This document shows, in pieces, positions 34,148 to 63,846 of a stretch of 64,000 bases of DNA (positions are counted from its first letter, which is position 1; each line of letters begins with the position of its first letter). Both the position numbers and the translations under genes were made by a program. Where the stretch lies: positions 35,895,183-35,959,182 of the forward strand of contig JASXTE010000002.1 in NCBI GenBank assembly GCA_030280995.1, given 5' to 3'. The stretch comes from Hemileia vastatrix (Eukaryota; Basidiomycota; Pucciniomycetes; Pucciniales; Zaghouaniaceae). The notes under the pieces were generated by a model that had not been told where the DNA came from, searched no databases, and worked only from the letters and a program-made list of their open reading frames with translations.

Positions 34148-34185
34148 CACCACGGGAAGTCTAGGGGTGAATTGCTAGCAATCCT
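34148..34185 (+). repeat. Left terminal inverted repeat of the 10.6-kb element
   Basis: About 37 bp matching the inverse of 44716-44755 with a few mismatches; GCTAGC core at 34174-34179. Confidence 0.82.
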
Positions 34186-34689
34186 CTCTCTTGAAATTTA
34201 GAGTGTCCCTTAATTATGCCAGGTTTATGAATACTTTATAAACATAAGTAAATTAGAGTTAGATTTACATTTATTCTCAGATTGATTTTAGACAGAATAT
34301 CAACTGATTCCAAATTATGCACAAGTTGATCCTCCAGAACTTGATTTTGGTCCTCTGATGAGAACAAATTGAGCACAAATTGATCTAACCTAAGCTTATG
34401 CATATATAATAATTCAGGATACTTGCTCTATTAAATTTGATAATAAAAAAAAATATTGATGAATTTATATAAAAAAAATTATTATGTAAGATATTAAATT
34501 ATAAATTTAGGCATCATAGGAGGGCACGTAATAGAACTTAATTATACTATGTGACACCTTAATACTGTATCACGCATTCTGAAACATTTAAAACAAAATG
34601 AGTCATAATGGGCAATGAAATTGCTTGGACAGACTCTTTCAAAATTAATACTGACCATAATACACAAGTATGAAACCTTGGCATCTATC

Positions 34690-37600
34690 CAATAAAAGAT
34701 TTTCCTTCTGATAAAAGGATTTTTCTCAGTTACTACCTGCTAAAAAGTGTCCTTCTGTGGTTTGTCTGACCTTCAGGGGGGTAATTTGGCCACATCACAC
34801 TACTTCTATTTCCATGATTGACCAAAACATCATCCTCATTCCCATCTAAAGAGTTGATCTCATCTGACAGTGGCTGATCAAAGGGGTCCACCACAAGTTT
34901 AGCCAAAATTTTGGTGAACACTTTTTTGATGGATAGTGACTAACTGGTGCTTTCTGAAATTGTCCACCTCAAGTTAGGATAAACTTCAGGAGGATAAATT
35001 TATTATGAATACCAAATTAACTGAAGAATACTTTTGCCCTAGCTACTCTGCATCATAAAAGTGTCCAACTGAGGTTTAGCCATAATTCAGGTAGACACTT
35101 TTGGAAAGGCACAGTCTGATGGGTTTAATATCTATATATGGCAATAAGTATCAGTTTTTTATCAACATGGAGCTAGAATTAATTTAATATGGCCAAAGTG
35201 TCCACCTGAAGTTTGGCCAAAATACATGTGGAAATTTTTATGAGGATTACTTAATGAAATGAAGAAGACTTGCAATTACTTTCCATCATAAAATTTTCAA
35301 ACTTAAGTTTATAGAAAATTGTGGTGACACTTTTTCCAGATCCAGTCATATGGGATCAACTCTCTATATGGCAATGAGAATCAATTTTTAGTCAATCATG
35401 GCATTAGAAGTAATTTTATATGGAAAAACTTTCCACCTGATTTTTGGCCAAAAATAAGTTGGAAATGTTTATGAGGAATACTAGATTAACTAAAGAAGAC
35501 TTGCACCCTACTACTGTCCATCATAAAAGTGTCCACCAGAAGAATTCTCAAACTTGTGGTTGACACCTTTGGCCTGGTCCAGCCATATGAGATCAATTCT
35601 GCATATGGAAATGAGGATTTAATTTGGTCAATCATGGTACTAGAAGTAATTTGATATAGATAAAGTGTCCAACTAAATATTGGAAAAAAATCAGTTGAAA
35701 ACTTCATTTAGTTTTTCAAAAAATCAAATTAAGTAAAATTTTATTCCTGATGATGCCCATTTTATCCAACACCTCTTCTGAGCCTTGAAAGTAGGCATTT
35801 AGCTTGAATTTTGAATTTCATATAAAATCCCTATTATTCAACCTATTTCTTTTTATCCCTTTTTTTTCTTTTAGATATCAATTAATTTTATGTAAAACAA
35901 ATCATTTTCATAATTTTTTACCTGTATTTAATAGAATTATTAAAGGTTTAACATCACCCTGTAAGCATTTGGCACCTGTTTTTTTGCTATGCTAATAAAA
36001 ATAATAATATACTGGTAACAAAAAATTGATCAAATGATAATATATTAATAAAACAGAAAGATCAAATACCAGTGGATATGTTTTAAAAAAATACCAGTTG
36101 CACTGAAGAAGAGCTGCACCCTAGATACTCACCATCAAAAAAGTGTCCAGCACAAGTTCGGCCGAACTTGTGCTGGACACTTTTGGTCAGTTGCAGTTAT
36201 ATGAGATCAATTCTTGCTATGGCAATGAAAAAAAACTTTTGGATAAAAAACTTCACTAGAAGTAGTTTTACATAGCCAAATTTTCTACCTAGATTTCATC
36301 CAAACCACAGGTGCACAATTTTTTATCTTTGAAAAAAAGTCAATTTAGTACAATTTATCCCTGATGGCTCTCATTTGCTTCAACACCTCTACTGGCTTTT
36401 GATAGTAGGAATATTACTTGGATTTCTTTTTTCATATTTGATCCCTTTAACTTAATTTTTTATTCCTAATATTGCTTTTGGATATCAATTAATAATTTTT
36501 ATAATAAATTATTTTCATATTTTTATACATTTATTTAATAATATTATAAATGGCATAAAATCACCTGGTATGCATTTGGCACATGAGTTTTTTCTATACT
36601 TATAAAATTAATAGTATAATGGCAACCAAAAATTAATCAAATGATATTAATGAGTGAGGAACAAATATAAAATACCAGTAGACATGTTTGTAAGAAATAC
36701 TAGGTGAACTGAAGAAAAATTCTACCCTAGCTACTCTACATTAAAAAAGTGTCCAGCACAAGTTTGGCCGAACTTGTGCTGGACACTTATGGTCAGGTGC
36801 AGTCAGATGGGAGCAATTCTCTCTATTGAAATGAAGATAAATTTTTGATAAAAAATTACACTAGAAGTAGTTTGATATGGCAAAATTTTCATGCTGAAGT
36901 TTTGGTAAAGCTCAAGTGGATTTTTTTTTTTATTTTTACAATAAGAAAATTTAGTGCAAGTTTAGCCCTGATTGTTCTAATTTAATTCAACATCTCTTTT
37001 TTCTGTTTATGGCAGGAATTTAACTTGGATTTTAATTTTTATCTTTCATTTCTTTTATTTTACTTTATTCCTCTCATATTGCTTTTGGATAGAAGTTTAT
37101 TTTTTGTAAAATAAATCACTTTCATATTTTTTTACCTTTATTTAATAATATTATAAAAGGTGTAACATCACCCAGTATTCATTTGGCACACAATTTTTTC
37201 TATACTGATAATATTAATAATATAATGGTGACAAAAAATTAATCAATTGATAAATATGATTGAGGCACAAAGATTTAATAACAGTGGAAATGTTTATAAT
37301 AAATTTCAGATGATTAAAAATGACTTGCACCCTGGATACTATTCATGATAAAAGTGTCCAGCACAAGTTTTGCCAAACTTGTGATGGACACTTTTGGTTG
37401 CATGCCATCAGAAGCAATCAATTCTTTTTATGGAAATGAGACTGAATTATCACTCCATCATTGCACTGAAAGTAGTTTTACATAGACAAATTGTCCCCTG
37501 GAAGTTTTTCCAAACCTAAGGTAGACAATTTTTTCCTTTGGTAAAAAGTAAATTTGATCCATGTTAATCTATGAAGGTGCCCGTTTTTTCTGAAGCCTCT

Positions 37601-40600
37601 ACTGGCTCATGATAGCAGAAATTATACTTAATATCTTTATTTCATGTTTGATCTCTTTAATTTTAATCTTACCCTTTTATTTATCCTTTAGCTTTTAAAT
37701 ATCAATTTTATTTTGGTAAAACTGATAACTTTCACATTTTTTTATATTTATTATATTATATTATTAAAGTTGTAAAATCATCCAGTGTACATTCATTACA
37801 CATTTTTTTGCTATACTAATAACATTAATAATATAATGGTGACTAAAAAATAATCAAATAATAAATATGGATGACACAGAAAGATCAAATACCCATAGAC
37901 ATTTTTAAAATGAATATAAGATTAACTGAAGAAGACTTGCACCCTAGCTACTCTCCATCATAAAAGTGTCCAGCACAATTTCAGCTGAGCTTGTGCTGGA
38001 CACTTTTGGTTGCATGCAGTCAGATGGGATAAATTTACTCAATGGAAGTTAAAATGAATTTTTGCTCAATCATTGCACAAGAAGTAGCTTTATACTGCTA
38101 TACTATCCTCCTGATTTTTTGGAAAACATCAGGTGGACACTTTTATTAATTTTAAAAAAAAGAAAAAATATTCCAAATCTAGAACTGGTGGTGCAATTTT
38201 GGTCTGAAAACTCAAATTATCTTTGATGGCAGAAATTTTATTTGAATGTTTAATTTCATATTTAATCACTTTTATTTTACTTTTTTGTTCCTGTTTTTGC
38301 TTTCAAATATCAATTTGTTTATTGTAAAACTAATTATTTTCATATTTTTTTTACTTTTATTTAATAAGATTATGAAAGATGTAGCATCTCCCAGTATGCA
38401 TTTGGCTTACAAATTTTTTCAATACTAATAACATTAATATTATAATGGTGAAAAACAATGAATCAAATGATAAATATGAATGACTCAGAAAGATCATATA
38501 CAAGTGGATTTGTTTATAAGGAATACCTGATGAACTGAAGAAGACCTGCACCCTAGATACTCACCATCATAAAAGTGTCCAGCATAAGTTCGGCCGAACT
38601 TGTGCTGGACACTTTTGGTTGCATGCAGTCAGATGGGATAAATTACTCTATGGAAATGAAAATGACATTTTGCTCAATCATTGCACAATAAGTAGTTTGA
38701 TATTGCCAAAATGTCCTCCTGATGATTTTTCAAAACTCATCAGGACACTTTCTTTGGTTTAACAAAAAAGAAAATATAGTGCAAGTTTAGCCCTGGTGGT
38801 GCACATTTGATCTAACACCTCTACTTGTTATTGATAGTGGGAATTTTCCTTAGATTTCTTTTTCTTATTTTATCCCTTTTATTTTACTTTTTTATTGCTC
38901 ATATTGCTTTGTATATCAATTTTTAATTTTTAAAATAAATAATTTTCATACTCTTATACCTTTATTTAATAATATATGATTAAAGGTGGAACACCACCTG
39001 GTATGCCTTTTTCACACAAGTTATTACTATAGTAATAACGTTAACAATATAATGATGACAAAAAATTAATCAAATGGTAAATTTAAATGACACAGAAAGA
39101 TCAAATTCTAGTGGAAATGTTTATAAGAAATCCCTTTTGAGTTTAAGAAGATTTGCTGTATGCCTACTATCAATTATAAAAGTGTCCAGCACAAGTTCGG
39201 CCGAACTTGTGCTGGACACTTTTGGTTGCATGAAGTCATATGAGATAAATTCTCTCTATGGCAATAAAAAATGATATTTCAATCAATTATTGAAGTAAAG
39301 AATGTTTAATATTGTAATATTGTCCCCTGGATGTCTGTCCAAACCTCAGTTCAAAATTTGTTAGCTATACATAAAATTAAGTTTAGACCAAGTCTTGACC
39401 TAGGGGTCCCCAACTGTCCCAACACCACTTCTGGCTCTTGATAGTAAAAATTTTACTTGTATTTTTTATTTCGTATTTGATCCCATTTATTTTCATTTTA
39501 CTTTTCTATTACTCTTTTTAATTTTAAATATCAATTTATTTTTTTAAAAACTAAACATATTCATATTTTTTTAACTTTATATAATAATATTATTAAAGTT
39601 TTAACATCACCAATTTTGCATTTGGCATGCAGGTTTTTGCTATACTAGAAACATTAATAATATATATGGTGACAAAAAATTAATTATAAGATAAATATGA
39701 ATGATAAAAAAAAGTTAAAAACCCAATAGAAATGTGAAAAACAAAAAACTGATGTACTGAGAAACACTTCCACCCTAGCTACTCTCCATCATAAAAGTGT
39801 CCAGCACAAGTTCGGCTGAACTTGTGCTGGACACTTTTGTTCAGGTTCAGTCAGATGGGATCAATTCTCTCTGTGGCAATTAAATTAAAAAAAATTCTAA
39901 ATAATTACATTAGAAGTAGTTTGGTATGGCTGAATTATCCACCTTGAGTTTTTCCAAACCTCAGGTGAAAAATTTTTTATCTTTAAAAAAAATTAATTTT
40001 TATCAAATTTAGCCCTGGTGGCACCCATTTGTTTCAACACCTCTACTGGCTCTTGAAGGCAGGAATTTTTCTTGAATTTTTCTTTTTCATATTTGATCTC
40101 TTTTACTTTACTTTTTTATCACTCATGTTACATTTGGATATTAATTTATAATTTTGGAAAAGAAATCATTTTCATATTTTTTTAACATTTTTTAATAATA
40201 TTATAAAAGGTGTAATATAACATGGCATGCATTTGGCGCACAAGTTTTTTCTGTACTAATAAAATTAATAAAATTCTAATGACAAAAAATTAATCAGATT
40301 ATAAAATATGAATAACACATAAAGATCAAATACTATTTGACATGTTTTAAAAAAATAACAGTAGCACTGAAGAAGACCTGCACCCTAGCTACTCTCCATC
40401 ATAAAAGTGTCCAGCACAAGTTCGGCCAAACTTGTGCTGGACACTTTTGGTCAGGTGCAGTCAGATGGGATCAATTCTCTCTATGGAAATGAAAAAAATT
40501 ATTTGATAAGAAACTTCACTAGATGTAGTTTGATATAGCTGAATTATCCACCTAGAGTTCATCCAAACCACAGGTACACAATTTTTTATCTTTAAAAAAC

Positions 40601-43345
40601 AATCAATTAAGTACAATTTATCCCTGACGGCTCTCATTTGCTTCAACATCTCTATTGGCCTTTGATATTAGCAATAATACTTGGATTTCTTTTTTCATAT
40701 TTGATCGCTTTAAATTAATTTTTTATTCCTCATATTGCTCTTGGATATCAATTAATAAATTTTAAAATAAATTTTTTTAATATTTTTATACATTTTTTTA
40801 ATAATATTATAAAATGTGTAACATCACTCAGTATGCATTTGGCACACAATTTTTTGCAATACTTATATAATTAATAATATAATTAAGACAAAAAATTAAT
40901 CAAACAATATGTATGAGTGAGGCACAAAGATAAAATACCAGTAGACATGTTTGTAAGAAATACCAGATGAACTGAAGAAAAATTCTACCCCAGCCGCTCT
41001 CCATCATAGAGGTGTCCAGAATAAGTTCGGCCGAACTTGTGCTGGACACTTTTGGTCATGTGCAGTCAGATGGGATCAATTTACTGTATGGCAACAAAAA
41101 AATTTTTTTATCAAATTTCACTAGAAGTAGTTTGGTTTAGCTGAATCATCCACCTGCTGTTCTACCCAATATCAGGTGTATAATTTTTTATCTTTAAAGA
41201 AAAGTTCACTTATTACAATTAAGCCCTGATGGCTCCCATTTGCTTTAACACCTCTACTGGCTCTTGATAGCAGGAATTTTACCAGTATTTTTTTCATATT
41301 TTAACTCTTTGACTTTTATTTTACTCTTTTATTCCTCTTTTTACTTTTAAATTTCAATTTAATTTTTGTAAAACTATTCCTTTCCATATTTATTTACATC
41401 TATTTTAAAAAATTATTGAAGGTATAACTTCACATGGTATGCATTTGGCACACAAGTTTTTCCTATACTAATAACATTAATAATATAATGGTGATAAAAT
41501 ATTAATCGGATGATAAATATGAAAGATACAGACTGATCAAATACCAGTAGACATGTTTATGAGAAATACAAGATGAACGAACTGAAGAAAATTTCCACCC
41601 AAGCTACTCTCCATCATAAAAGTGTCCAGCACAAGTTTGGCCAAACTTGTGCTGGACACTTTTAGTCACGTGCAGTCAGATGGGATCAATTCTCTATATG
41701 GCAACAAAAAAACATTTTTTTATTAAACTTCACTACAAGCAGTTTTGTTTAGCTGAATCATCCACCTGTTGTTCTTCCCAACCTCAGGTGTATAATTTTT
41801 TATCTTTAAAAAAAAGGTCACTTATTACAATTCAGCCCTGATGGCTCCCATTTTTTTCAACACTTCTACTGGCTCTTGAGAGCAAGAATTTTACTAGTAT
41901 TTTGTTTTTCATAATTGATCTCTTTGAGATTAATTTTACCTTTTTATCCCTCATATTGCTTTTTTATATCAATTTATTTTTTGTAAAACAAATCATTTTC
42001 ATATTTTTTTACCTTTATTTAATAATATTATAAAAGGTGTAACATCACCCGGTATGCATTTGGCACACAAGTTTTTGCTATACTTATAATATTAATAATA
42101 TAATGGTGACAATAAATTAATCAAATGATATATATGAGTGAGGCACAAAGATCAAGTACCAATGGACATGTTTATAAGAAATACCATATTAACTGAAGAA
42201 AAATTCTACCCTAGCTACTCTCCATCATAAATGTGTCCAGCACAAGTTCGGCCGAACTTGTGCTGGACACTTTTTGTCACATGCAGTCTGGTGTGATCAA
42301 TTCTCTCTCAATCATTGAACTAGAAGTTGTTTGATATGGCTAAATGGTTATGCTGAAGTTTTTTTAAACCTCAGATTGGCACTTTTTTGTTTTTCAAAAA
42401 AGCAATTATAGTCCAAGTTTAGCCTCACTGGTGGACATTTGCCCCAACATGTCTACTTGCTCTTGATGGCAGTATATTTATTTTAATTTTTTATTTCATA
42501 TTTGATTCCTTTAATTTTACCTTTTTATCCCTCATATTGCTTTTGTATATCAATTTATTTTTTGTAAAACAAATCATTTTCATATTTTTTTAACTTTATT
42601 TAATAATATTATAAAAGGTGTAACATCACCCGGTATGCATTTGGCACACGAGTTTTTGCTATACTTATAATATTAAAACATAATGGTGACAAAAAATCAA
42701 TCAAATGATAAATATGAGTGAGGCACAAAGATCAAATACCAGTGGACATGTTTATAAGAAATACCAGATGAACTGAAGAAAAATTCCACCCTAGCTAACC
42801 TCCATCATAAAAGTGTCCAGCACAAGTTCAGCCGAACTTGTGCTGGACACTTTTGGTCACATGCAGTCTGATGTGATCAATTCTCTCTATTGCAATGAAG
42901 ATGAATTTTTCTTTAATAATTGCACTAGAAGTTGTTTGATATGGCAAAATTGTCATCCTGAAGTTTTGTTAAAGCTCCAGTGGATTTTTTTTTATTTTTA
43001 CAAAAAAGAAATTATAGTCCAAGTTTAGTGCCACTGGTGGGCGTTCACCCCATCATGTCTACTTGCTCTTGATGGGAGGAATTTCACTTTAATTTTTTAT
43101 TTCATATTTGATCCCTTTAATTTTACCTTTTTATCCCTCATATTGCTTTTGGATATCAATTTATTTTTTGTAAAACAAATCATTTTCATATTTTTTTACC
43201 TTTATTTAATAATATTATAAAAGGTGTAACATCACCTAGTATGCATTTGACACACGAGTTTTTGCTATACTTATAATATTAATAACATAATGGTGACAAA
43301 AATCAATCAAATGATAAATATGAGTGAGGCACAAAGGTCAAATAC
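34690..43345. repeat. Satellite array, about 608-bp unit with central palindrome
   Basis: Twelve well-kept units have a near-perfect palindrome (aaaagtgtccagcacaagtt and its complement around TTCGGCCGAA, 46 bp when perfect, e.g. 36139-36184) near 36.14, 36.75, 37.35, 37.96, 38.57, 39.18, 39.79, 40.40, 41.01, 41.62, 42.23 and 42.81 kb. Three older, shorter-spaced units lie at 34.74, 35.05 and 35.53 kb. The flanks of each palindrome also repeat (e.g. TATGCATTTGGCACAC and ATGATAAATATGAGTGAGGC). No coding potential is conserved between units. Confidence 0.9.
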
Positions 43346-43940
43346 CAATTAATCAATAGTTCTTTTTAATATTATAAATTTTTTGATTAAATAAAATGGT
43401 AATAATGAATTATATTTTTCATCCACCATTCCACTCTAATGATTCCCACTGCACAAAAAGGGTTCACTTGGTCCTTTCTTTACTGCTTGTGCATATATTT
43501 TATTGCCCACAGTACTACAATTTTTTGTAGTGATTATCCCACATCTGATTCAGGAATATTTTTAAATATAAGTTTTTTTTAAAAAAGACCTTATCATATC
43601 CAATATCCCACAAAAAATACAACCTGTTTTTGTATTAAAGCCCGTTAATTATTAAGAAATTGTTAAAATAATTAGATTAGACCCTGGCACAGCTAGATCC
43701 ATACCAACTGACCTAAAGTCTTTTCAATATTGAAAACAATTAAATAAAATTATGATATCATACTAAATTATGGGCACCAACCATAATTCAGCACTTCTCA
43801 TTTGCTCTGCTACAAAATGAGTGCATGTAGCATTTTTCTAACGTCGGACTGTTTTTCTTCCTTCCCTCACACCTTTAGTCCAGAATGAAAATTTAGTATG
43901 AGTTTTGGTCAAAATGGTTTGCCAATGTTATCTGTATGCA
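43346..43940. other. Right unique part of the 10.6-kb element
   Basis: Non-repetitive AT-rich DNA between the satellite and the TGCATA block. No gene or second copy is visible in this window. Confidence 0.5.
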
Positions 43941-44355
43941 ATATGAATTCATATTGCATATTTCTATTTATGCATAAAATATACTCGTTAAGCATCATTT
44001 TTTTTGCATTTTTCAATCATTATGCATATTTATGCATATTCATATGCATATTCATTATAAAGATTTATATGCATATTAATATATTTTATTCATATACGTA
44101 TATGCACCTTTTTTTTGCATATTCAATATGCATATTTTTAATGCATATTCAATATGCATATTTTTATGCATATTAAATATGCATATTTTTAATGCATATT
44201 CAATATGCATATTTTTAATGCATATTCAATATGCATATTTTTATGCATATTTTATGCATATTTTTATGCATATTCAATATGAATATTTTTTATGCATAAT
44301 CACTATGCATATTTTTTTGCATATTTTTATGCATATTTTTTATGCATATTTATTC
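43941..44355. repeat. TGCATATT short-motif repeat block
   Basis: Dense runs of ATGCATATTCAATATGCATA-type units of about 22-27 bp, most regular at 44120-44350. Because ATGCAT and ATATGCATAT are self-complementary, the block is also a string of small palindromes. Small plus-strand open frames here (43898-44484) are repeat by-products. Confidence 0.88.
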
Positions 44356-44715
44356 TTCATAGTCATTATGCATACACTTTGGATAGGCAATTCACATCAA
44401 TTTTTAGCATGCAATAAGTATCCACCATGCAAATTCAAATGCATATGCATCTATATCAAACACGCAACATATATTCAAGTTTAATATTTGAATATTAAGG
44501 TATGCTAAGTGATGTTGTTCAACCTTTTGCCAAACCTGAGATTAACTGATGTTCAATGTGGTTCTTAAGCTCTGCTCAAGGAGGGATTGTTCTGGATTCA
44601 ATCTGTGACAGTTTATTTTTTCAATGTTTTTTCATCAGATTTAAAAACATCTTTCTGACAGTTTCAGGATGGTTTCCCAACAGTTTCCTGACAAATTCCT
44701 AATAGTTTCAAAAAG

Positions 44716-44755
44716 AGGGAACTGCTAGCAGTTCACCCCCAGATTTCCCGTGGTG
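44716..44755 (-). repeat. Right terminal inverted repeat of the 10.6-kb element
   Basis: Ends ...CCCGTGGTG, inverse of the 34148 end, with CTGCTAGCAG at 44722-44731 and AGT duplication at 44756-44758. Confidence 0.82.
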
Positions 44756-44758
44756 AGT

Positions 44759-46387: not shown

Positions 46388-46660
46388 CACCACAGAAAAA
46401 ATGGGGGGTATTGCTAGCAATACCCCTTGCTTGAGCTCCGTTGAGCCACAAATCTATGCTTGAATTATGCACACATCATCACCATGTAGGAAATTGTTTG
46501 GCCTTACATTTAGTCAGAGATTTGTCACAGATTGAGCTCAAGATGAACCTACATTGATCACCATTTGATCTTGTAAAATCCTAATTTGATCATCAGTTAA
46601 GCTCCCTTTGATCTCACTTTGATCTAACATAAGCTTTTGCATATCCAATATGTCAACTAT
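46388..46660 (+). mobile_element. Left end of a further CACCAC TIR element, right end unseen
   Basis: Begins CACCACAGAAAAAATGGGGG, then GGTATTGCTAGCAATACC with GCTAGC 26 bp from the end, the same layout as the 34148 and 50814 ends. The next 250 bp resemble the left subterminal region of the 10.6-kb element (shared GATCTAAC-TAAGCTT-TGCATAT). The preceding triplet is TAT. No matching GTGGTG end occurs further right in the window, so the element either runs past 64000, which would place the dioxygenase gene inside it, or is truncated. Confidence 0.6.
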
Positions 46661-50810: not shown

Positions 50811-50813
50811 TAA

Positions 50814-51644
50814 CACCACGCAATATGGGGGGCGGACTTGCTAGCAAGTCCGCAACCTTGAACCCTAATTCATATCTTTTTGAGCACACATTGAGGAAGT
50901 GATGAAACCATCATGAAGAAGTATTGAATTTACTTTGAACACAAATGGGGCTACAAGGGCTGGAAAGGCTGGAGAGAGGGGTGAGGAAGGGTGTATGGGG
51001 TAGCGAAAAGGTTGGGAAAGAGTTGGAAGGGAAGATTAAGGGTTCCGAGGCATTTTAAATGAAGAAAAGGGTCTGGGAGAGGTTGAGAGGGGTGAAATGG
51101 GGATCAAAAGAGGATGGCATACAATGGGGCTGGGAGGATAGTGAAAGGCATGGGAAGGGAAGACAAACATGTGTTGATAGAATTGAAAGGGATGGAGATT
51201 GGTGCAAACAGAGTGTGAAAATAGGAGGATGAACTCTGTTCTTCGGGCGAAGAACAGAGTTCACTTCCATAAAATATTAGCTGAAACAAAACAGAGTGTG
51301 AAAATAGGAGGATGAACTCTGTTCTTCGGGCGAAGAACAGAGTTCACTTCCATAAAATATTAGCTGAAACATAGTTTTCAATTCTGTAAAAACAGTTGTA
51401 GGTAATAGAAAAAGTCACTGATCTTCAAAAAATACTTTGCATTGAGTAGACTCATGGAATGATTTTTTCTGGCTTCCATTCAGTTATCCTCACACTTTCA
51501 CTATGTTTTCAATATAGATCCATTGTTATTTGTGTGATACTTCAAGTGAAAGTTCAGTATTACTTCAGTCTGAGTTCCATCTGATTTCCATCTGACTTCA
51601 AGTTGCGGACTTGCTAGCAAGTCCTCCCCCTATATTGCGTGGTG
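50814..51644. mobile_element. 831-bp CACCAC TIR element, copy 1
   Basis: Starts CACCACGCAATATGGGGG and ends in the inverse, with GGACTTGCTAGCAAGTCC in both ends and TAA duplications (50811-50813, 51645-51647). Near-identical to 63016-63846. It contains an 83-bp tandem duplication (51208-51373), each copy holding a 34-bp palindrome around TTCGGGCGAA (51230-51263, 51313-51346). No coding capacity; minus-strand frames of 61-71 codons are by-products of the repeat. A small non-autonomous (MITE-like) member of the group. Confidence 0.92.
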
Positions 51645-51647
51645 TAA

Positions 51648-53100
51648 GTTCAAAGCTGCACATCACTACTTCAAGATGAAACTCCATATAATGTAATCAA
51701 GGAATGATATATTATAATGAATTTTACTAGAGACTTTTCAAAAATGGTGATTAAGAATACTTATTATAATTTTTTAAATTTTTATTATTATTCTATCTCT
51801 TGAAAGGAGATGGCCATATCTCAATTTAATTAGTTTTTCTTCAGAAAAATTTATTCTTGATCTAAATAAAATTGCATCACTATTAACTAGATGTTATTAT
51901 ACAATTTTAACAATTTTTTTATCTGAACATAGTTGAAAGTATGTATAAATTAAAGTGTTTCCACATAGTCTTACTATTATCCCACCATTATTTTCACATT
52001 TAGATTTCATTATAACTGTAAAATAAGTTTTTCAATAATTTTAATAATACCTTAATATTTAATAATTTAGTTACATAGTAGATTTTTTATCCTTTTTTTT
52101 TATGAGGCTTATTATATAAACACTACTTTTAGATTTTATCCATTTTGATGTCTGATAATTTAAATTTTCATTTAACTACCCAAATTATATCAAAAAAAAT
52201 TCAAAAGTATATTTTTTTAATGTACTCTTTTTGATAAACTTATCATTTCTTATAGGTTATTCTTCAACTATTTATTGTAATTAACTACCCACTCATTTAT
52301 GGTCTGTTATTGTTGTTCATTACATACAGTTAAAATAAGGATACTCTCATATTATATTGGAGTTTTAAATTAAAAAGTAAATACTAGTGGCTGGTATTAA
52401 ATATGAAGTTGTTATAACTAAGTTGAACATTAATTAATTATTAAATGGCATTTTATATTACAAATTTTATTGAATGTATATAAAAATAACACTCAAGAAA
52501 TATATATAAGATATATATATAACCATTGTATATCAAAAATGAAGTACTTATCAACATGGTCTTTTTAAATGATTTTCAAATTTACTTATAGAGACATTAA
52601 TATTACCAATTCAAATTTTATATCAAATACAACAATATTATTATTTCATTTTTAATTATTTTACAAAAAATTTGAGTTTCAAAGTAATTTAATTCAGTAT
52701 TTAATGAATGTTTTTGAAAAATATTTTTAAAAATAGAAATAACCCCTCACAAAAAAAATATAATTTTTTTTACTTACAATTTGCACCATATTTCTACCCT
52801 TAAAATATTTGTATTCTTCTAACAAAAATATTTTTTAAATAAATTTAAAAATTTTTTCATTATTCAATTACAAAATGTCAAATTTATAATTTATTTTACC
52901 TTACTAAAAAATTTAGTTGAAAATTTAATTTTGTATTTCCAAAAAATAAACTTAAATGTCAAAAATTAAAAAAACAAAATTATAAATATAATTATGAGAA
53001 AGAGGTAGATTAAATTTATAATATTCATATAAAAATAATTCATATATTTTATGGTGTTTGAATTTTAAATTTAATGTATTAAAAATTAATTATTAAATAA
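51648..53100. other. AT-rich DNA without recognisable genes
   Basis: No frame of note on either strand; poly-A/T tracts and one TA-rich stretch near 52500. Confidence 0.55.
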
Positions 53101-53784
53101 CCAAGCCAAATGAAATTGGCTTGGATTTTTGGTATCACTAGCACTTATTTTTTTTCTTATACTCACATTTTATTTATTTATTTTTTTTTCTAGATTTCTC
53201 CTTTTTTTTATGATTTTTAATGTTTTTAAGACCAAAGTTGCTTTCAAACAACTTTGGTCTAACGTTTCTCTCACTTTCCCACCAGATTGCACCTGGTAGG
53301 GAAAGTCGCTTCCATTTTAGAGACCAAAGTCCCTTTCAGGGACTTGGTTTCTCTGTGTGCATTGCACAGCCAGAAAAAAACTGGCTGTGCAATCCACTGC
53401 ATGCAGCACATGCAACATGCATCGCTGCTGCAAGTAATGCGCATTGCATGCAGCAGAAATGCGTGTTGCAGGCTGCATGCAGCGCGCATATCTCATGCAG
53501 CTGACTTGATATCAGCTGCATGAGATATGGTAGCAATTGTGCAACGCGCGTTGCACACTGCTTTGGCCACCTCCCAGCCTAGTAAATTAGCTGGGAGGGT
53601 GGCAAACATTACAGCAAGCAATCAAAGTCGCTTTTAGCGACTTCGATTGCTTGAAAGAGACACTTCCAGCCAGGGGAAACCTGGCTGGAAGTACTAAATT
53701 GCAATGTAAGGGACCCAAGCCAATTTCAAAGGCTTGGGTCATAAATTAAGGTTTCTAAAAAGCAGCCAGTATAAATCTGGCTGC
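53101..53784. repeat. Cluster of thirteen different DNA hairpins
   Basis: Consecutive inverted repeats with 8-18-bp arms and short loops: 53101-53124, 53229-53260, 53273-53306, 53319-53354, 53361-53393, 53398-53482 (nested), 53488-53528, 53538-53557 (loopless, TGTGCAACGCGCGTTGCACA), 53566-53603, 53615-53653, 53662-53692, 53712-53740 and 53762-53784. From 53229 on most bases are in stems and gaps are about 4-20 bp. Arms differ from hairpin to hairpin apart from shared words (CAGCCAG, CAAGCC, ACCAAAGT). The region is far less AT-rich than its surroundings. Frames of 66-94 codons on both strands (53220-53536) reflect this composition and are not called genes. Confidence 0.88.
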
Positions 53785-54828
53785 AATAAAAAGTAAATTT
53801 TTTAAATAAAATACATAAAAAAATAAAAATGTGTTCAAATAAAATATACAACACTCTTCAGCCAATAAGAAACAGCCTTCCATTGTTACACATAGAAACA
53901 AAATCAAATGTTTCTTTCATCAACATTGGCCATGTTTCAATATTTTGAACCAAGTAAGATCAGGAAAAAGGTCACGGCAAAAAAATTGCATAATTAAAAG
54001 TCTCCCAATTTAATATGGTGCGGAGGTTCATATTTTAGAAATAGGTGGTGCACATTATAGTTTCCTTTAAAAAAATTCAAAAATGAATTAATTTTGGCGC
54101 AATGTAAATTTAAATGTGATGAGTGTATGTTTTTTAGCTACGTGAAACATGGTAGCTAGAATTATGTGGCGTCAATTTTTTTTAGATGTGAAATTCAGTG
54201 TTCCACAAATGTGCATCTGTACAACATGCAGCCAAGTAAATTCTAGCTGGAATTAGTATATGCATGGGAAAAAATGATCATGCTGTGTACAGCGCCTTGG
54301 CAACATCATTCTTGGAATTTAGATGAAGTTTATCATATGACTTGGTGAGCTGCATTTTTTTGAAAATGTGATCAGTGAAAATTCATGATATATACATCTG
54401 TTTGCCACCCAATTTATTTTTCCTTTCTCTTTCTCACTTACCTTTTTCAAAAATTATCAATCATATTTTTGCTTTATCATTTTGAATTATTGGTACTATT
54501 TTCTTGACCTTATCTGATTACCGGTAAGCAAATTTTTCTTGCTATTGCATTTCATATCATTTTGGTTTGTTACACTTTTTTACACTTTTGACAAGTTAAT
54601 CTAATGATTCTAATTCTGAATTTATTTTTATGGTATCTTTTACTGTACCCTTTCGATTCATTATAAAATAATTCTTTTTCAGTTAACTTAAAGTTTTTTT
54701 ATTTGTTTGTCAATTTACTTTTCTTTATTCCTTATCAAAAATGTTCAATTTATTTATCTAACCATTTATTTTTTAAAACAGTGATTATAAAATAAACTTT
54801 ATAATTAATTTTGATCAATAAGCTACAA
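53785..54828. other. Region upstream of the dioxygenase gene
   Basis: About 1 kb without a gene. It should contain the promoter of the gene starting at 54829. A C/T-rich run (TCCTTTCTCTTTCTCACTTA) at about 54419-54440 is the kind of pyrimidine tract often seen near fungal start sites; no clear TATA box is assigned. Confidence 0.4.
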
Positions 54829-56740
54829 ATGGAAGAAGATTTTATAGACATGTAAGTTCATGTTTTGCTTATCATTTTTCTATATTTCTTTAATACTTTC
54901 TCAACCATTATATTATTAATATGAAAAGTAAAACATCATCTCGTACTTGCTGAAAGCATACAGGATAATGTTTTGCTTTTCATAATAATAATTAGATTGT
55001 TTGTACTTTACCTTTAATTTATTGATTTTTAAGTTGTTTCAAAGTCTTGTACTTGCTGAAAGCATACAGGACAATGCTACAATTTAAAAATTAATAATTT
55101 ATTGAAGTATAACTTTCTAAGTCAATATATTGATCAGAGCAAGATTTTTCATTTTATATATGTGGATATCATAATTCCGTAAATTTTTTAATATTACTAG
55201 TGTATTGGAGTTATACTTTCATTATATTATTAATATTAAGTGTAGAGCCAAATCTCGTACTTGCTGAATGCATACAGGATAAAGCTATACTCTTTATATG
55301 TATAATTTAATAAAGTATACCTTTGAAACGCTTTCTTAATATTTGAAATAAAGAAAAAGTATATAAATTTACTAATATGTAGATATGCTAACTTTTGTAT
55401 TTCTAATATTGAAGATATGATAAAGTTAAAGGTATCATTGACTGATAATTGAAATTATGTTACTATTTTCTAATTTTTGATTTTTTTCTATTTTAAATCA
55501 AAATTGAATTCTCTTAGGATTGAACCATCAATGAGTAACGATTTGAAAAAAAAAAACGGCCAGGGAAGAACTCTAACAATAGGTGGGCAAAAGACATTGC
55601 TACTGGAATGAAACTTGTAAACGCTCTTGGAATGGATACAAACGGGAAGAAGCCACATTTCTATGCACGATCTTATGCAAATAATATGACAGATTGCAAT
55701 AATTATTACAATTTTTTTCCTGGATGTAGTATTTATAAACCAAAAGGTGTCTTAATACCTAATGTTCTTGTGCAGACTTTTGAAATTCATGAGCTCAAAG
55801 AACTAGATATGTTAGAAGCTATGGTGCGATGCATTAAGGATCTTTCTTACTGCGAACATGAAATTAAAAATAATGGTTATCATCAAAGAGCTGGTGGTTT
55901 TGGAAAAATGTTTGGTGGTGGCTTTATTTTAGATAGAAAGAAATCTTTACATATTCGTAAGTATCACTTTTTTTAATTTAAATACTGAATTTTTGAATGC
56001 TTTTCCTTGCAGATGAATACACTGATGATATTGTAAAAACGGATGAATATAAAAAACGAATGAAGAGGATTGCAATGTACTTTGAATATTTTTTTAAAAA
56101 AATATCATATGTAAAGTACAATGAGGCAACTAATCTTTGCGCAAAACTTGGTATTCCTGGATTTTCAAAAGTTTCTAGTGAAGAAGAGGGTGTACCGTTT
56201 GCTAGTAATTTAACTTGGACATCTGGAGGGAATGGTAATGGGTTCTCTAATGAGGTTCATCTCGATAAGGATGCAAGTGAGTATACTTTAGGAATATTTT
56301 TTCCTAAAGATACAGAAAAAAACACCATTCATATGAAGTATGATAAGACCCAACCACGACAAATAGGTGGAGAACTTATGTTTCCCGAAATTCGAAGTAA
56401 AATCAACTTTGAAGCAACTAATGGAATAACAGTGACATTATGGCCTGCCAATCAACTAAGGCATTTTACCTCAAGATGTCATGAAATTCCTGGCTTCACT
56501 AGGATAGGTTCTTCTATTCAAATCAGCACTAGACTTTTTCATGCTATAGAAAAGCTTAATGTTTTTGATATTGATATTTCAGAATACTTAGAAATTAAAA
56601 AAGAAAAATTTAGGTTAGAATATTTGATTAGTGCTTTGAGAGTTTTTTTGAAAAGAGATGACTTAATAGAGGAAGAAATAGAATCAGCAAAGTATTATTT
56701 ATCTAATGTTAAGACAAATCTAAAAAATCTAGATATATAA
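54829..56740 (+). CDS. Tet/JBP-like 2OG-Fe(II) dioxygenase
   Basis: Exons 54829-54851, 55518-55956 and 56013-56740, with GTAAGT donors and AG acceptors; about 396 residues if the A-run at 55546-55556 (eleven A) is counted one base longer, since the upstream frame (M-E-E-D-F-I-D, then M-S-N-D-L-K-K-K) and downstream frame (N-N-R-W-A-K-D-I) differ by one there. From ATG 55608 the rest is fully open, 358 residues. The catalytic double-stranded beta-helix shows the iron ligands H-L-D in N-E-V-H-L-D-K-D-A-S-E-Y-T-L-G-I-F, G-G-E-L-M-F-P, and a distal R-H-F-T with a following G-S-S-I-Q-I-S-T-R. This pattern matches the Tet-like 2OG oxygenases expanded in rusts and other basidiomycetes, expected to oxidise 5-methylcytosine. 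Convergent with the gene at 57540. Confidence 0.82.
54937..55290 (+). repeat. Three ~30-bp direct repeats inside intron 1
   Basis: Near-identical TCGTACTTGCTGAAAGCATACAGG-type blocks at 54937-54970, 55045-55078 and 55253-55290, with looser similarity on both sides. Each resembles a branch point plus acceptor (CTGAA ... CATACAG), so they could be alternative or decoy 3' splice sites, or a regulatory element. Confidence 0.7.
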
Positions 56741-57539: not shown

Positions 57540-59970
57540 TTAATTTATTGAAAGGCTATGTTTAGCAAAAAAAGGTGATACTGGCTGAATGGAGCTCCAG
57601 TGATTAAGAAAATCTGCAGAAATAGCCCTAGCAATTCCCGGAGGACTTGGGGTATCAAATTTTAAAGGAAATGGATCACACTTGCCTATAAAAGGTTTTA
57701 TTAATGTTAAAATATAGTTATTTAAATTTTTCCAAATTATTTCTTCCATCAAATGATTTTTTTTTTCATGTAAATTAAGAAACTTAACTTCTGATATTAC
57801 CTCCAAGCAATCAGCTGCTGAAGCCAATCTATGATCTTGAGAGCTCAGAAATAAACCACGGACACCATCAATTATATAGAATGTGAAAGATTGATATCGG
57901 TGGTGGGAGTATTCAGAATTTATTTTGTTTAGTGCAGCCTTTTGTTTCTCTCTCATTATAGTCAGTTCAGTATTTTCGTTTTTCTCACTTGATTGTTGAG
58001 CTTCACTAGTCTTGCCACTTGATATTGTTGCAGCACAATATTTTGATTTAAGAATGATAATTGACATAATTATATCAATGATAATATTGCTGATTTGAAG
58101 AAGAGTTGACATTGATATATCACGGGTTTGAAGTGCAGTGGGACCAACTTCTAAGCCATCAGAAATCGGACTCTTCAGATTTGAAAGGTGAGCTAGAAGC
58201 TGAAGACCACGTTCAATTGGACAATCTGAGTTAATGTTTTGATGTGATGGAAGCTGGCTGAATTCATGTGCGGTCAGATAAAGTGAAGATGATATAAGAG
58301 ATACCCATGAAGAACGGCAGTGGTCACTTGGGATCATTAATCTCATGAGCATTCGGATAAGATTGGATTCAAAGTGATCCGTTTTCTTTGTTGAGGAAAG
58401 AATTTCAGTATTTAAACCATCAGGATCACATAAATCTTCCATTTTTTTGAAATCAATATTATTGAGTACCCATAGCTGTGAGCTATCAATCTCTAAAAAA
58501 ATATTTGCTACAAAAGGAAAAAAAAAATAAGTAAAAGAACAAAAGTCAAGACTAAAAATTATGGTAACTTACATAACTCAGTAAGTTTTGAAAGCCAATC
58601 TTCTCCACAAGATTTTTCCCAATGAAAAGTAAACATTGGAATATTTGACATGGGTTCTTGGGAATAAGTAGAAGAGCGTAATTCGAGGAGAGTAACAATT
58701 TCCAACCACGACCTGAGGACCTTTGCCGTGCTGATTCTACCTTTATAAAAATTATGAATTTTACAGAATTCCTCCTGCAAACCAGATTCTTTTAGAACTG
58801 AGGGTGAATAAGTTAGAGGTTTTTTCGATATCTTGATTGGAGTTGATTTCATTGGTAGAGAAGCTTTCAGAATGGTCAAAGTAGGTAATTTAGGAGGTGA
58901 TGTGTATTGCTTCTTAGAAATGAAGGAAATTGGTGATGAGCTGTTTGAATCATCATCTTTATCAAACATATCAACATGTCTTGAAGAAGATTTTAAACTT
59001 TGCTTTTTTTGATGAACAAGCATAGCTTCATATTCTGATAGTTGATCATCGCTATTTTCATTGCTCTTTTCATCATCTTCATCAGGGAGAGGGCGTTTAT
59101 GGATGGAACAATCTACAGCAGGTGAGTTTCTGGTACAAAATATCAAAAGAAAGATAAAAAGTACAATATGTAAGCAATAAAAGAGATATATGATTGAATT
59201 TTAAAGATAAAAGAATAACAATAAAAAAAAAGGAAACAAGAATATACTCATTATCAAAACCTTTGCTTTTTTTTTGAGATTTATTATTTGATACATCAGA
59301 AAATTCATTAGCAGAAGCCGGTTTAATACGTGGAACAAAAGAGGAGCCTTGGGATAATCTCTTTTTCTTGGAGCGGATAACAGGTGTTTCAAGATTTTCC
59401 TTAGAAGTTGAAGCATGAGTTGAAGCTGATGGTTCATCTGTCTCATCATCATCCCTAATGACAATGACTTCATCAGGAGGAATCATACCCTCCTCATAAG
59501 CTACAAATATATATGAAGAAAAAAAAATATTAATAATCTTATCTACTAATTTAAAAGGAGACAAAAAAGGTGATGAACATACATTTTTCAAGGCTTTTCA
59601 CATATTGGAGTAATTCATTACAAGGGTTAGATAAATATGAAGGAGAAGGATTATTGTTAAGGATCTTGACAAGCTCTTCTGTTTTATCTCTAGCCAATTC
59701 AAGTAAATTGCGATACTGAACTCTTGTTATTTCCTGCCTCTCTTTGCTAAGTACAGGAGGGTTAGGTGCCATGCCATGTGGCAGACATGGTGCAAGCTCA
59801 AAAGCTTAAAAGCGAGTATCAATCAGAGAGTGGGATGAAACACATTTGGGTGCTGGAAAATTAAATTTTTGAAAAAAAAAGATATAGAACATAAGTGAAA
59901 TATATAAATTAAGAGAGAGGAACATGATATACATACAAAGTGGAGGTGTAGGATTTTGTATACTAGACAT
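57540..59970 (-). CDS. Spliced gene of unknown function, convergent with the dioxygenase
   Basis: Four exons are secure: 59772-59583, 59500-59248, 59129-58573 and 58507-57540, introns 82, 118 and 65 bp with GTATGT, GTATAT and GTAAGT donors; lengths sum to 1968 nt (655 residues). An extra first exon 59970-59937 (ATG, donor GTATGT) joined to an acceptor at 59805/59806 keeps frame and gives 677 residues. Residues about 1-70 are helical; 70-300 are acidic, Ser-rich and disordered with basic nuclear-localisation-like patches (R-S-K-K-K-R, K-K-S-K); the C-terminal about 350 are Leu-rich, helical, with no signal peptide. No family is recognised. Proximity suggests it works with the Tet-like protein, for example as a DNA-binding partner, but that is inference. 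Confidence 0.75.
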
Positions 59971-60994
59971 ATTGATTAATGAATATTAAAAAAAAGTATT
60001 CGATATCAAAAAATTATGATGTAATATGATGAATAATTATAAGAAACTCTATTCTAGAAAATTGAAGTTGATATTTTAATAGGATAAAAAATTGAATAAG
60101 ATTAAAATTAAAGTGAGGATGAAAGAAACAGAAAACATAAAGAGGGGGATTTTATATTATTTGAGCTTTTTTTAACATGTATTATTCATAGTGGGGTAAA
60201 CTGAGTAACATGCTAAATCACAATCTGTTTATATTGAAGCGAAATTTGATGTAGCTAACAGAAAATACTAGTAATTCTTTGGGGACTTTTAGTGTGAAAA
60301 ACAAATAATAACAAATTTATATCCCATATTCAAATTGCCACGGGTAAATACAAAATTTTTTAAATTAGAATTTACTCCTAAACAATGGAGATACACTTAA
60401 TTAGTATATTATATGAAAAAAAAGGATAATCCTTTATGAATATTTGTTAAATTTAATTTCAGATGACAATGCGAGATTCACATATATACTGATATGCCTC
60501 ATCAAACAAGAAATGAATTATAAATATAAAATTGGTAACAATAGAATTTAAGATAAGAATTTGTTTTTTAAGTGACAGGAGGAGTGTCAGGCTAGGGTGT
60601 GGGCACCGTGACCAAACCTTTGATAAACTTGGATACAACTAAGGGAAAAAAAAAATTGAATAGTTTTATTTTGCAATATATCTTAGTCTGCACAAGATAT
60701 TGCATTGTTGTCCCTAACTATACCAAAATTGTTACTTTTCAAAAGTTATAGGACTACTAAGTTGATAAAATATTATTATGAATCACCCAATGAAATACCT
60801 TAAGCAACATTCAAAATTATTAAAATATTAATATTCAATTTGAGATTTGGATTAGCTAATTTTTCACAACTTACCACAGTTTTGATTAATATAATAAAAC
60901 TTGAAAAAAATTGTTGAGATAACCTAGAAATGGGTGCAAGAAAATGATGAAACATATGACTTGAAACTTAACTCATACACTATTGATAAACTTC
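59971..60994. other. Upstream region of the unknown gene
   Basis: Promoter-side DNA of the minus-strand gene, AT-rich. GTGTCAGGCTAGGGTGTGGGC at 60575-60605 is a less AT-rich island whose first bases resemble the TGTCAGCC LTR start, but no LTR follows. Confidence 0.4.
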
Positions 60995-62945
60995 ATGGAT
61001 CCTGATTAATTTCTATCGAAATTAATTTTGAGACTAGCATATTGAATTTTAGCTATGACCAAGTACTGTAAGTGCCATGGTTTGTATTCAATATATTGGT
61101 GTTGAAATTAATTTTGATAGGAATCAACAAGTATCAGATGGCACCATGCATGAAACACTGACAGAAACCATCAAATTTATGAGGCAATGAACCTCATAAT
61201 TTCGATCGAAATTAATATAGACCCCTGCATATTGAATACAAGCCATTTCACATGGACTACACAGACATAGATAAAATTCAACATGCATGGCTTAATATTA
61301 ATTTTGATCGAAATTAACCAAGGCATTAAAACATCAATTTTTATATGGTGTACTTGATCAAACCAGTTTATCTAACTTCTTAGCTTACCTATACTTATAG
61401 GAATTTTATGCATAGTCCATGTCCATATTAATTTCAATCGAAATTAATGTTGACTAATACATAATGAATACATGCTATGCCACTTACACTTTCCAGGCAT
61501 AGCTACCATTAAATATGCCAGTATCAAAAATTAATTTCGATCGAAATTAATGAGCATGATAATCATGAATTTCTGGAGTCAACTGCTTATTTTTATGCAT
61601 GGTGCCTTGCCAACATTAATTTCGATCGAAATTACTTTTGATACTGGCATATTGCATGTATATATGCCTGGAAAGTGTAAGTGGCATAGTGTGTATTCAT
61701 TATGTATTGGTCAACATTAATTTTGATCGAATTTAATGTTGACATTTGAATATTGAACCCAAGCCAGAAAACAACCCAGAAGATTCTTCATAAAACTTCC
61801 CATTAATTTCGATCGAAATTAAGGCTGACCATATACATATTGAATGGTAGTTATATCTGGTCTGAGTAAGTGGAGATTACTTATATTCAATATGTATTGG
61901 TCAACATTAATTTTGATCAAAATTAATGAGCATTTTGATCATGAACTTTTTCAGTCAGTTAGTTGTTTCAATGCATAATGGCATTCCAACATTAATTTTG
62001 ATCAAAATTAATGTTGAAATGATATAATGCTTTTTTGCATGACATGTAAAGGACGGCAAGTATTTTTAAGTATTGAAATTTACTATACATGTTGAGGGTA
62101 AATATAAAATTTACATATCCATATTAATTTCTATAAAAATTAATGTTGACCAATACATAATAAATAGTAAATATGCCTGGCTAGTGTAAGTGGCATAGCT
62201 TTTTTTCAATCTGCACTTGGCAACATTAATTTCGACCGAAATTAAGGTTCATGATTATCATCAATTTATTCAGTCAGTTGCTTACTGTTATGCATGGTAA
62301 CATGTCAACATTAATTTTAATAAAAATTGAATTTGACATGCTACCAAGCATTTTTATGTAAGATGAAAAGTAGGGCACTCTATTGTTAAGTAAACACATT
62401 ACAATGCATATTGAGCATGTAAATATCATTTACACATTAATATTAATTTCAATCAAAATTAATGTTGACCAATAAACATTGAACACAAGCTTTACAACTT
62501 ACACACACCAGATATAACTACCATTCAATATGTATATGGTGCTCACTAATTTCGATTGAAATTAATGAGCAGTTTTATGAAGAATTTTTTGGGTCGTTTG
62601 CTGGTTTGGGTTCAATATGAAAATGTCAATATTAAATTCTATTGAAATTAATGTTGACCAATACGTAATGAATACACACTATGCCACTTACACTTTCCAG
62701 GAATAGACACCATGCAATATGCCAGTATCAAAAGTAATTTCGATCGAAATTAATGTTGGCAAGGCACCATGCATAAAAATAAGCAGTTGACTCCAGAAAT
62801 TCATGATTATCATGCTCATTAATTTCGATCGAAATTAATTTTTGATACTGGCATATTTAATGGTAGCAATGCCTGGCAAGTATAAGTGGCATAGCGTGTA
62901 TTCACTATGTATTGGTCAACATTAAATTCGATTGAAATTAATATG
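60995..62945. repeat. Dispersed array of about twenty TTCGATCGAA palindromes
   Basis: Copies of TTAATTTCGATCGAAATTAA recur every 80-130 bp. Intact cores TTCGATCGAA start at 61201, 61536, 61621, 61808, 62739 and 62824. Variants include TTTGATCGAA (61303, 61722), TTCAATCGAA (61433), TTCGATTGAA (62551, 62927), TTTGATCAAA (61912, 61997), TTCAATCAAA (62448) and TTCGACCGAA (62231). The spacers are themselves repeated in both orientations: 61516-61680 is inverted at about 62705-62866. No open frame. Confidence 0.9.
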
Positions 62946-63015
62946 GATACATAAATGTGACATAAAGAGGTATGGACCATCAATTTGTTGAAAATACATT
63001 TTTATATCTCATACA

Positions 63016-63846
63016 CACCACGCAATATGGGGGGCGGACTTGCTAGCAAGTCCGCAACCTTGAACCCTAATTCATATCTTTTTGAGCACACATTGAGGAA
63101 GTGATGAAACCATCATGAAGAAGTATTGAATTTACTTTGAACACAAATGGGGCTACAAGGGCTGGAAAGGCTGGAGAGAGGGGTGAGGAAGGGTGTATGG
63201 GGTAGCGAAAAGGTTGGGAAAGAGTTGGAAGAGAAGATTAAGGGTTCCGAGGCATTTTAAATGAAGAAAAGGGTCTGGGAGAGGTTGAGAGGGGTGAAAT
63301 GGGGATCAAAAGAGGATGGCATACAATGGGGCTGGGAGGATAGCGAAAGGCATGGGAAGGGAAGACAAGCATGTGTTGATAGAATTGAAAGGGATGGAGA
63401 TTGGTGCAAACAGAGTGTGAAAATAGGAGGATGAACTCTGTTCTTCGGGCGAAGAACAGAGTTCACTTCCATAAAATATTAGCTGAAACAAAACAGAGTG
63501 TGAAAATAGGAGGATGAACTCTGTTCTTCGGGCGAAGAACAGAGTTCACTTCCATAAAATAGTAGCTGAAACATAGTTTTCAATTCTGTAAAAACAGTTG
63601 TAGGTAATAGAAAAAGTCACTGATCTTCAAAAAATACTTTGCATTGAGTAGACTCATGGAATGATTTTTTCTGGCTTCCATTCAGTTATCCTCACACTTT
63701 CACTATGTTTTCAATATAGATCCATTGTTATTTGTGTGATACTTCAAGTGAAAGTTCAGTATTACTTCAGTCTGAGTTCCATCTGATTTCCATCTGACTT
63801 CAAGTTGCGGACTTGCTAGCAAGTCCTCCCCCTATATTGCGTGGTG
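63016..63846. mobile_element. 831-bp CACCAC TIR element, copy 2
   Basis: Near-identical to 50814-51644, same length, flanked by ACA (63013-63015, 63847-63849). The palindromes around TTCGGGCGAA lie at 63432-63465 and 63515-63548. Only a handful of single-base differences from copy 1 are visible (e.g. GAAGAGAAG for GAAGGGAAG), so both are recent. It lies just beyond the TTCGATCGAA array. Confidence 0.92.

What the first reader, a model, noticed from the sequence alone, without database searches (positions are those of the whole stretch)
34148..63846. Three separate repeat arrays share one palindromic core, TTCG-NN-CGAA
The 608-bp satellite centres on TTCGGCCGAA, the 61-63 kb array on TTCGATCGAA, and the 831-bp elements on TTCGGGCGAA. 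The flanking arms are unrelated, but the TTCG..CGAA frame and its two symmetric CpGs are common to all. In AT-rich DNA this is unlikely by chance and suggests one binding or modification activity acts on all three.
Basis: partly seen in the sequence, partly recalled or inferred. Interest (0 to 1): 0.86.

Follow-up and report, generated by a model that had tools for sequence, protein, structure and literature searches.

The report
CpG palindrome arrays in fungal transposons
In a stretch of DNA from what is probably a rust fungus, three different sets of repeats, at least two of them inside jumping genes, are centred on the same short mirror-like sequence containing two CpG sites, which looks like a shared docking or modification site but has not been shown to be one.

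Summary
TTCGNNCGAA occurs 16 times (0.02 expected), only at the centres of three palindrome families: F1 (608-bp units), F2 (61.0-62.9 kb), F3 (831-bp elements). The two 831-bp copies are 827/831 identical, so three families are the real sample; a CpG-containing shared 4-mer arose in 0 of 2 million random trios. F1 and F3 lie inside complete CAC..GTG elements with 3-bp target duplications, as in rust EnSpm/CACTA transposons; for F2 this is inferred. In a CpG-poor window (o/e 0.19) CpGs concentrate in the cores, which are also where the palindromes mutate, mostly to TpG/CpA. Arms differ, with compensating changes that structure or neutral template switching could explain. Best reading (0.36): multimerised CpG-dependent docking sites, working like plant VANC anti-silencing arrays, perhaps with the nearby Tet-like dioxygenase gene. 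Nothing shows binding or methylation; the genome search did not complete. Against: a tandem array in the 10.6-kb element and all seven terminal palindromes (core GCTAGC) lack the motif; neutral palindromic satellites remain a strong rival (0.30). New variant of a known kind; mechanism unproven.

The parts
34148..44755 (.). Element A: complete 10,608-bp CACCAC-TIR element, TSD AGT on both sides; its only ORF of 100 aa or more is a 118-aa one through the ATGCATATTC repeat; contains F1
34743..35706 (+). Older, decayed part of F1: about 231-bp units, 9 degenerate palindromes at spacings of 76-137 bp; 2 of 9 cores are TTTGGCCAAA, the others further decayed
36139..42854 (+). F1 A-type: 12 copies of a 46-bp palindrome centred on TTCGGCCGAA, 580-615 bp apart; a weaker B-type palindrome starts 112-138 bp after the start of each
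44079..44374 (+). ATGCATATTC-type tandem array in element A that lacks the motif (counter-example)
46388..46426 (+). Element D: unpaired left end CACCACAGAAAAAATGGGGGG with terminal palindrome GGGGTATTGCTAGCAATACCCC; no matching right end found in the window
50814..51644 (.). Element B: 831-bp CACCAC-TIR element, TSD TAA
51206..51371 (+). F3 in element B: 83-bp unit twice, each with hairpin TGAACTCTGTTC-TTCGGGCGAA-GAACAGAGTTCA
55608..56740 (+). Tet-like 2OG-Fe(II) oxygenase gene: exons 55608-55956 and 56013-56740 with a 56-bp GT-AG intron (start codon uncertain); candidate partner
   Evidence: Pfam PF20515: E 1.3e-23, profile 22-208 of 211, for the spliced 358 aa; E 2.5e-22, profile 67-208, for exon 2 alone; intron printed
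57540..59805 (-). Several ORFs of unknown family, possibly exons of one gene; nothing above a Pfam cut-off
61005..62942 (+). F2: 20 palindromes like ATTAAT-TTCGATCGAA-ATTAAT, spacings mostly about 102 or 85 (three of 130-132); spacer segments present in both orientations
63016..63846 (.). Element C: second 831-bp element, TSD ACA, 827 of 831 bases identical to element B
63408..63573 (+). F3 in element C: 83-bp unit twice with the same hairpins

Best explanation
F1, F2 and F3 are multimerised docking sites carried by related EnSpm/CACTA-type transposons (F2's carrier is inferred). The site is a symmetric palindrome with two CpGs, TTCG-NN-CGAA, which would suit a homodimeric, CpG- or methylation-sensitive DNA-binding protein encoded by an autonomous family member or by the host. 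Repeating the site lets even gene-less copies recruit the protein. The likeliest purpose is anti-silencing: marking the family's copies for removal or blocking of cytosine methylation, possibly with the neighbouring Tet-like dioxygenase. SHOWN: the sites; the two-level anatomy (terminal GCTAGC palindrome, internal TTCGNNCGAA palindromes); CpG concentration in the cores; conservation of the palindrome within the F1 unit; CpG-focused change; a Tet-like gene nearby. INFERRED: binding, dimerisation, methylation state, anti-silencing, and that F2 and the Tet-like gene belong to element D.
For: Core sharing beyond chance. In the F1 unit the palindrome is the most conserved 46-bp window: mean column identity 0.962 against 0.832 for the rest; its non-CpG cells differ from the consensus in 10 of 504 cases. 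The window is CpG-poor (o/e 0.19), but in the F2 array the TCG context alone is high (TCG 1.25; ACG 0.16, CCG 0.14, GCG 0.07). CG against TG+CA: F2 22-bp palindromes 20:16, F2 spacers 4:283; F1 10-bp cores 14:10, F1 spacers 15:849. Each F1 core CpG is CG in 7 of 12 units; in the 7 other columns where at least 9 of 12 units have CG, TG or CA, CG is seen in 1-2 of 12. TIRs CAC..GTG and 3-bp TSDs match rust EnSpm, with three TET-bearing families described from P. striiformis (PMC12730594, parts 1-5 of 7 read). VANC proteins bind a short motif in tandem arrays in noncoding parts of their own transposon and cause loss of methylation (PMC5735166, parts 1-2 of 6 read). TnpA of the CACTA element Spm is linked to demethylation (passage in PMC10398659).
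Against: No binding protein, transposase, methylome or expression data. One window, hence three families, and a post hoc motif. The Tet-like gene is not shown to lie in the same element as any array, and it had no relatives in two word-based searches. One tandem array in element A lacks the motif. 30 of 64 core CpGs are lost, so many copies are no longer intact sites and the cores are not protected from deamination-type change. CG concentration does not prove retention: most spacer TG/CA may never have been CpG, and over the whole 46-bp F1 palindromes, arms included, CG against TG+CA is only 14:104. Array homogenisation could also keep the palindromes alike.
Confidence: 0.36

Rival explanations
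1. Neutral palindromic satellites. Hairpin-prone sequences were amplified inside transposons; template switching between arms makes them symmetric and flips spacers, and gene conversion keeps units alike. The shared core is remote common ancestry or coincidence, with no binding activity.
For: Compensating arm changes in F1 (56 cells changed on both sides against 29.7 shuffled) and spacer segments in both orientations in F2 are both products that template switching is said to give: homogenised arms and spacer inversion (start of the abstract of PMC8604942 in the listing). Tandem arrays homogenise.
Against: Does not explain why the part common to all three families is a CpG-containing core in a CpG-poor sequence, with unrelated arms.
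Confidence: 0.3
2. Transposase or accessory-protein sites in the manner of Spm TnpA, used for synapsis or excision rather than anti-silencing.
For: CACTA elements use repeated subterminal motifs (recalled; the listing shows papers on it). Palindromes recur in these elements at fixed places: GCTAGC lies 25-26 bp from all seven ends in the window.
Against: The TTCGNNCGAA sites are internal: from the coordinates, F1 A-type sites begin 1,991 bp from the left end and stop 1,901 bp from the right end of element A, and the F3 hairpins lie 416 and 298 bp from the ends of an 831-bp element. The terminal palindrome is the better candidate for a transposase site and has another core.
Confidence: 0.2
3. 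Host silencing or chromatin sites: the palindromes are recognised by a host factor such as a methyltransferase or a centromere-type protein.
For: The changes fit methylated CpG: 10 of 11 in the F1 CpG columns and 17 of 23 in F2 are transitions. CpG-preferring 5mC is reported for a rust fungus, and CpG loss in transposons for A. psidii (passages of PMC8063080).
Against: A transposon should lose sites that silence it. No CENP-B box in the window on either strand.
Confidence: 0.1

Closest known systems
TET-bearing EnSpm (CACTA) transposons of Pucciniales (Kojima 2025, PMC12730594)
   Same: CAC..GTG ends, 3-bp TSD, a Tet-like dioxygenase gene in the neighbourhood, CpG-poor surroundings
   Different: In the main text (parts 1-5 of 7 read; term search of the main text) 'satellite' does not occur and 'palindrom' once, about the ends of transferred TET genes; supplements were not seen. 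The complete elements here (A, B, C) show no dioxygenase gene and no transposase.
VANDAL/VANC sequence-specific anti-silencing in Arabidopsis (PMC5735166, PMC10398659)
   Same: Short motif multimerised in tandem repeats in noncoding transposon DNA, the repeats differing between related elements
   Different: The VANC21 motif YAGTATTAY has no CpG and is not palindromic; no VANC domain was seen in the proteins tested here
Maize Spm/En with TnpA
   Same: CACTA-type element whose protein is linked to demethylation (passage)
   Different: TnpA motifs are subterminal (recalled); the sites here are internal palindromes

Membership tests
EnSpm/CACTA of rust fungi | 5'-CAC..GTG-3' termini | tested here: met
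   Elements A, B, C: CACCACG..CGTGGTG
EnSpm/CACTA of rust fungi | 3-bp target site duplication | tested here: met
   AGT, TAA, ACA on both sides of A, B, C
EnSpm/CACTA of rust fungi | DDD/E transposase with C(2)C and H(3-4)H motifs | tested here: inconclusive
TET-bearing transposon | Tet-like dioxygenase gene inside the element | tested here: inconclusive
   Gene present at 55608-56740; right end of element D not found in the window
VANDAL/VANC system | Encoded VANC protein (DUF1985/DUF287) | tested here: inconclusive
   Neither domain among the Pfam hits of the translations tested, but the autonomous element is not in view; only a works-like claim is made
VANDAL/VANC system | Loss of methylation at target arrays | not testable with these tools
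   No methylome
CENP-B box satellites | NTTCGNNNNANNCGGG (consensus recalled) | tested here: not met
   0 matches on both strands of the window

The most novel reading that the evidence does not exclude
A fungal counterpart of plant VANC anti-silencing: transposons carry arrays of a CpG palindrome as self-recognition tags that direct a transposon-encoded Tet-like dioxygenase, directly or through a partner protein, to demethylate the whole family, including gene-less copies with unrelated internal sequence.
Probability: 0.17. Interest if true: 0.88.

Novelty: new variant of a known kind. Interest (0 to 1): 0.56.

Why it matters
Why fungal DNA transposons repeatedly carry Tet-like dioxygenases is open; their function is stated to be without experimental validation, and action without target specificity is only speculated on, for mushrooms (PMC12730594). 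A CpG palindrome shared by otherwise unrelated arrays would give the question of targeting a concrete cis-element, testable by methylome and DNA-binding assays.

Tried and rejected
Chance as the whole explanation: rejected. CENP-B box: absent. Matches to degenerate patterns of the F1 palindrome and of the 831-bp right end in viral contigs: 0 and 0, as expected for a fungal sequence. Homologues of the Tet-like protein by word search: none for exon 2 at E 0.001 nor for the spliced protein at E 10, although Pfam recognises both. Solved structures by sequence, exon 2 only: two chance-level hits. AlphaFold model of exon 2 without an alignment: mean pLDDT 36, not used. Rfam in 46-64 kb: nothing above gathering scores. 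A TCG over CCG preference in the F1 core changes (TCG hypermutation is stated for Pucciniomycotina in PMC12730594): 6 against 4, from the columns, decides nothing; window-wide TCG (0.16) is no rarer than ACG (0.16), both below CCG 0.25 and GCG 0.24.

Papers on palindromic satellites in rust or CACTA transposons: none evident in the listings (10 of 34 papers listed, none of the 10 holding 'Pucciniales'; 5 of 5 listed); this covers only that open library and those terms, and titles and abstract starts only.

Covariation: cells rest on paralogous repeats and are not independent events. Against structure: the number of pairs with changes on both sides (10) is reached by 158 of 500 shuffles and by slid versions (up to 12), and the number of pair types by 150 of 500. 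For structure: 79.8% of cells pair (shuffled 72.0, slid 49 at most), 56 cells with changes on both sides (shuffled 29.7, slid 26 at most), covariation score above all 500 shuffles.

Full report
WHAT THE WINDOW IS. The window is 30.4% GC with CpG observed/expected 0.19. It holds Ty3/Gypsy-like elements: a search with one of their ORFs found 1,188 relatives; among the 120 listed, the rows that bear an organism name read Austropuccinia psidii MF-1, at roughly 37-57% identity, one further row is named only 'jgi:hypothetical protein', and unnamed rows reach 66%. It also encodes a Tet-like 2OG-Fe(II) oxygenase (PF20515). I take it for a rust fungus or a close relative, species unknown (inference). 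Low GC with CpG loss in transposons is described for A. psidii (passages of PMC8063080).

THE OBSERVATION. TTCGNNCGAA occurs 16 times against 0.02 expected, in three families only: 5 in F1, 7 in F2, 4 in F3. Because copies within a family are related and the two 831-bp elements are identical at 827 of 831 bases, I tested families rather than copies. Three random half-palindromes drawn from the window share some 4-mer at the same distance (0-2) from the centre with probability 2.6e-4, and a 4-mer containing CpG in 0 of 2,000,000 draws. An estimate from 4-mer frequencies gave 9.2e-5 for any shared 4-mer and 3.5e-7 for two further families matching TTCG. The motif was defined after seeing the data, so these are guides, not strict P values.

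THE CARRIERS. Element A (34148-44755, TSD AGT), element B (50814-51644, TSD TAA) and element C (63016-63846, TSD ACA) are complete, with inverted ends CACCACG..CGTGGTG. All seven ends in the window, one of them the unpaired left end at 46388 (element D), carry a second palindrome with core GCTAGC 25-26 bp from the tip, with arms that differ between elements. CAC..GTG ends and 3-bp duplications are what Kojima gives for EnSpm of rusts, with three Tet-bearing families from P. striiformis (PMC12730594, parts 1-5 of 7 read). No transposase was found in the 18 translations given to Pfam; not every frame was tested. F2 and the Tet-like gene lie 3' of element D's left end, but no right end was found in the window, so their membership is inferred.

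F1. Twelve 46-bp palindromes, consensus AAAAGTGTCCAGCACAAG-TTCGGCCGAA-CTTGTGCTGGACACTTTT, recur every 580-615 bp. A weaker B palindrome starts 112-138 bp after each, and nine decayed palindromes in older 231-bp units lie to the left at 34.7-35.7 kb. In the 12 aligned units the palindrome is the most conserved 46-bp window: mean column identity 0.962, rest 0.832. Of 21 changes in 552 palindrome cells, 11 are in the 4 CpG columns (10 of them transitions) and 10 in the other 42. Each core CpG is CG in 7 of 12 units; in the 7 other columns where at least 9 units show CG, TG or CA (and at least one shows CG), CG is present in only 1 or 2.

F2. Twenty palindromes (at least 16 of 22 positions matching) stand mostly about 102 or 85 bp apart, three gaps being 130-132. 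Related spacer segments occur in both orientations, including a 97% inverted pair 61422-61658/62711-62947. Changes: 23 of 80 cells in the CpG columns (17 transitions), 17 of 360 elsewhere (7 transitions). TCG is at 1.25 of expectation in this array, against 0.16 for ACG and 0.07-0.14 for GCG and CCG.

F3. Each 831-bp element has an 83-bp unit twice, with hairpin TGAACTCTGTTC-TTCGGGCGAA-GAACAGAGTTCA. Element B has 11 CpGs and element C 12, four of them in these cores. The centre is a G.G mismatch.

CpG BALANCE. CG against TG+CA: F2 22-bp palindromes 20:16, spacers 4:283 (Fisher 1.8e-18); F1 10-bp cores 14:10, spacers 15:849 (6.6e-17); over whole F1 palindromes with arms 14:104. So CpGs are concentrated in the cores, not in the arms. 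This does not by itself prove retention, because the ancestral state of spacer TG/CA is unknown. Conservation of the palindrome, concentration of changes at CpG, and survival of 34 of 64 core CpGs together fit sites that are methylated at times, hypermutable, and held by selection or by array homogenisation.

ARMS. Across 33 F1-type palindromes (32 distinct) 79.8% of cells pair (shuffled 72.0), and 56 cells have changes on both sides, against 29.7 +/- 3.7 shuffled and at most 26 when slid; the covariation score is above all 500 shuffles. But the number of pairs with changes on both sides (10) and of pair types (28) is reached by 158 and 150 of 500 shuffles, and slid versions give up to 12 such pairs. 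Symmetry tends to be kept while arm letters change. A structure-reading protein or a cruciform could do this; so could template switching, which is said to homogenise arms and invert spacers (start of the abstract of PMC8604942, listing). I cannot separate these.

HOW IT MOST LIKELY WORKS. The common element is a symmetric site with two CpGs, repeated in arrays whose other sequence is unrelated. The nearest mechanism in print that I saw is VANC, which binds a short motif in tandem arrays in noncoding parts of its own transposon and causes methylation loss there (PMC5735166, parts 1-2 of 6 read; PMC10398659, passages). A Tet-like gene 5 kb from one of the arrays makes an anti-silencing role attractive. 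I hold the docking-site reading at 0.36, the form with a targeted Tet-like enzyme at 0.17, and neutral palindromic satellites at 0.30.

AGAINST. One tandem array within element A has no such core; terminal palindromes use GCTAGC; no genome-wide test was possible because the genome search did not complete; no protein partner was identified; the Tet-like protein had no relatives in the word-based searches, and its model was too poor to use.

Noticed in passing
53090-53890: A cluster of many different hairpins (20 inverted pairs in 53000-54100); as RNA it folds to -345.8 kcal/mol against a mean of -196 for 20 shuffles, z -40.7. Three hairpins (53229-53260, 53322-53350, 53615-53653) look related by eye, with similar letters around CTTTnA and different stems. 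No Rfam match in 46-64 kb. Lies upstream of the Tet-like gene; unexplained.
   Followed up: partly
34174, 44724, 46413, 50840, 51613, 63042, 63815: All seven CACCAC element ends in the window carry a palindrome with core GCTAGC 25-26 bp from the tip, with arms that differ between elements.
   Followed up: partly
61422-62947: F2 is a mosaic of inverted segments; about 450 bp (61422-61871 against 62497-62947) is inverted-duplicated at 88-97%.
   Followed up: partly
57540-59805: Minus-strand ORFs of unknown family next to the Tet-like gene; possible partner protein.
   Followed up: partly
3600-11400 and 16000-31200: Ty3/Gypsy-like retroelements in several states of decay.
   Followed up: no
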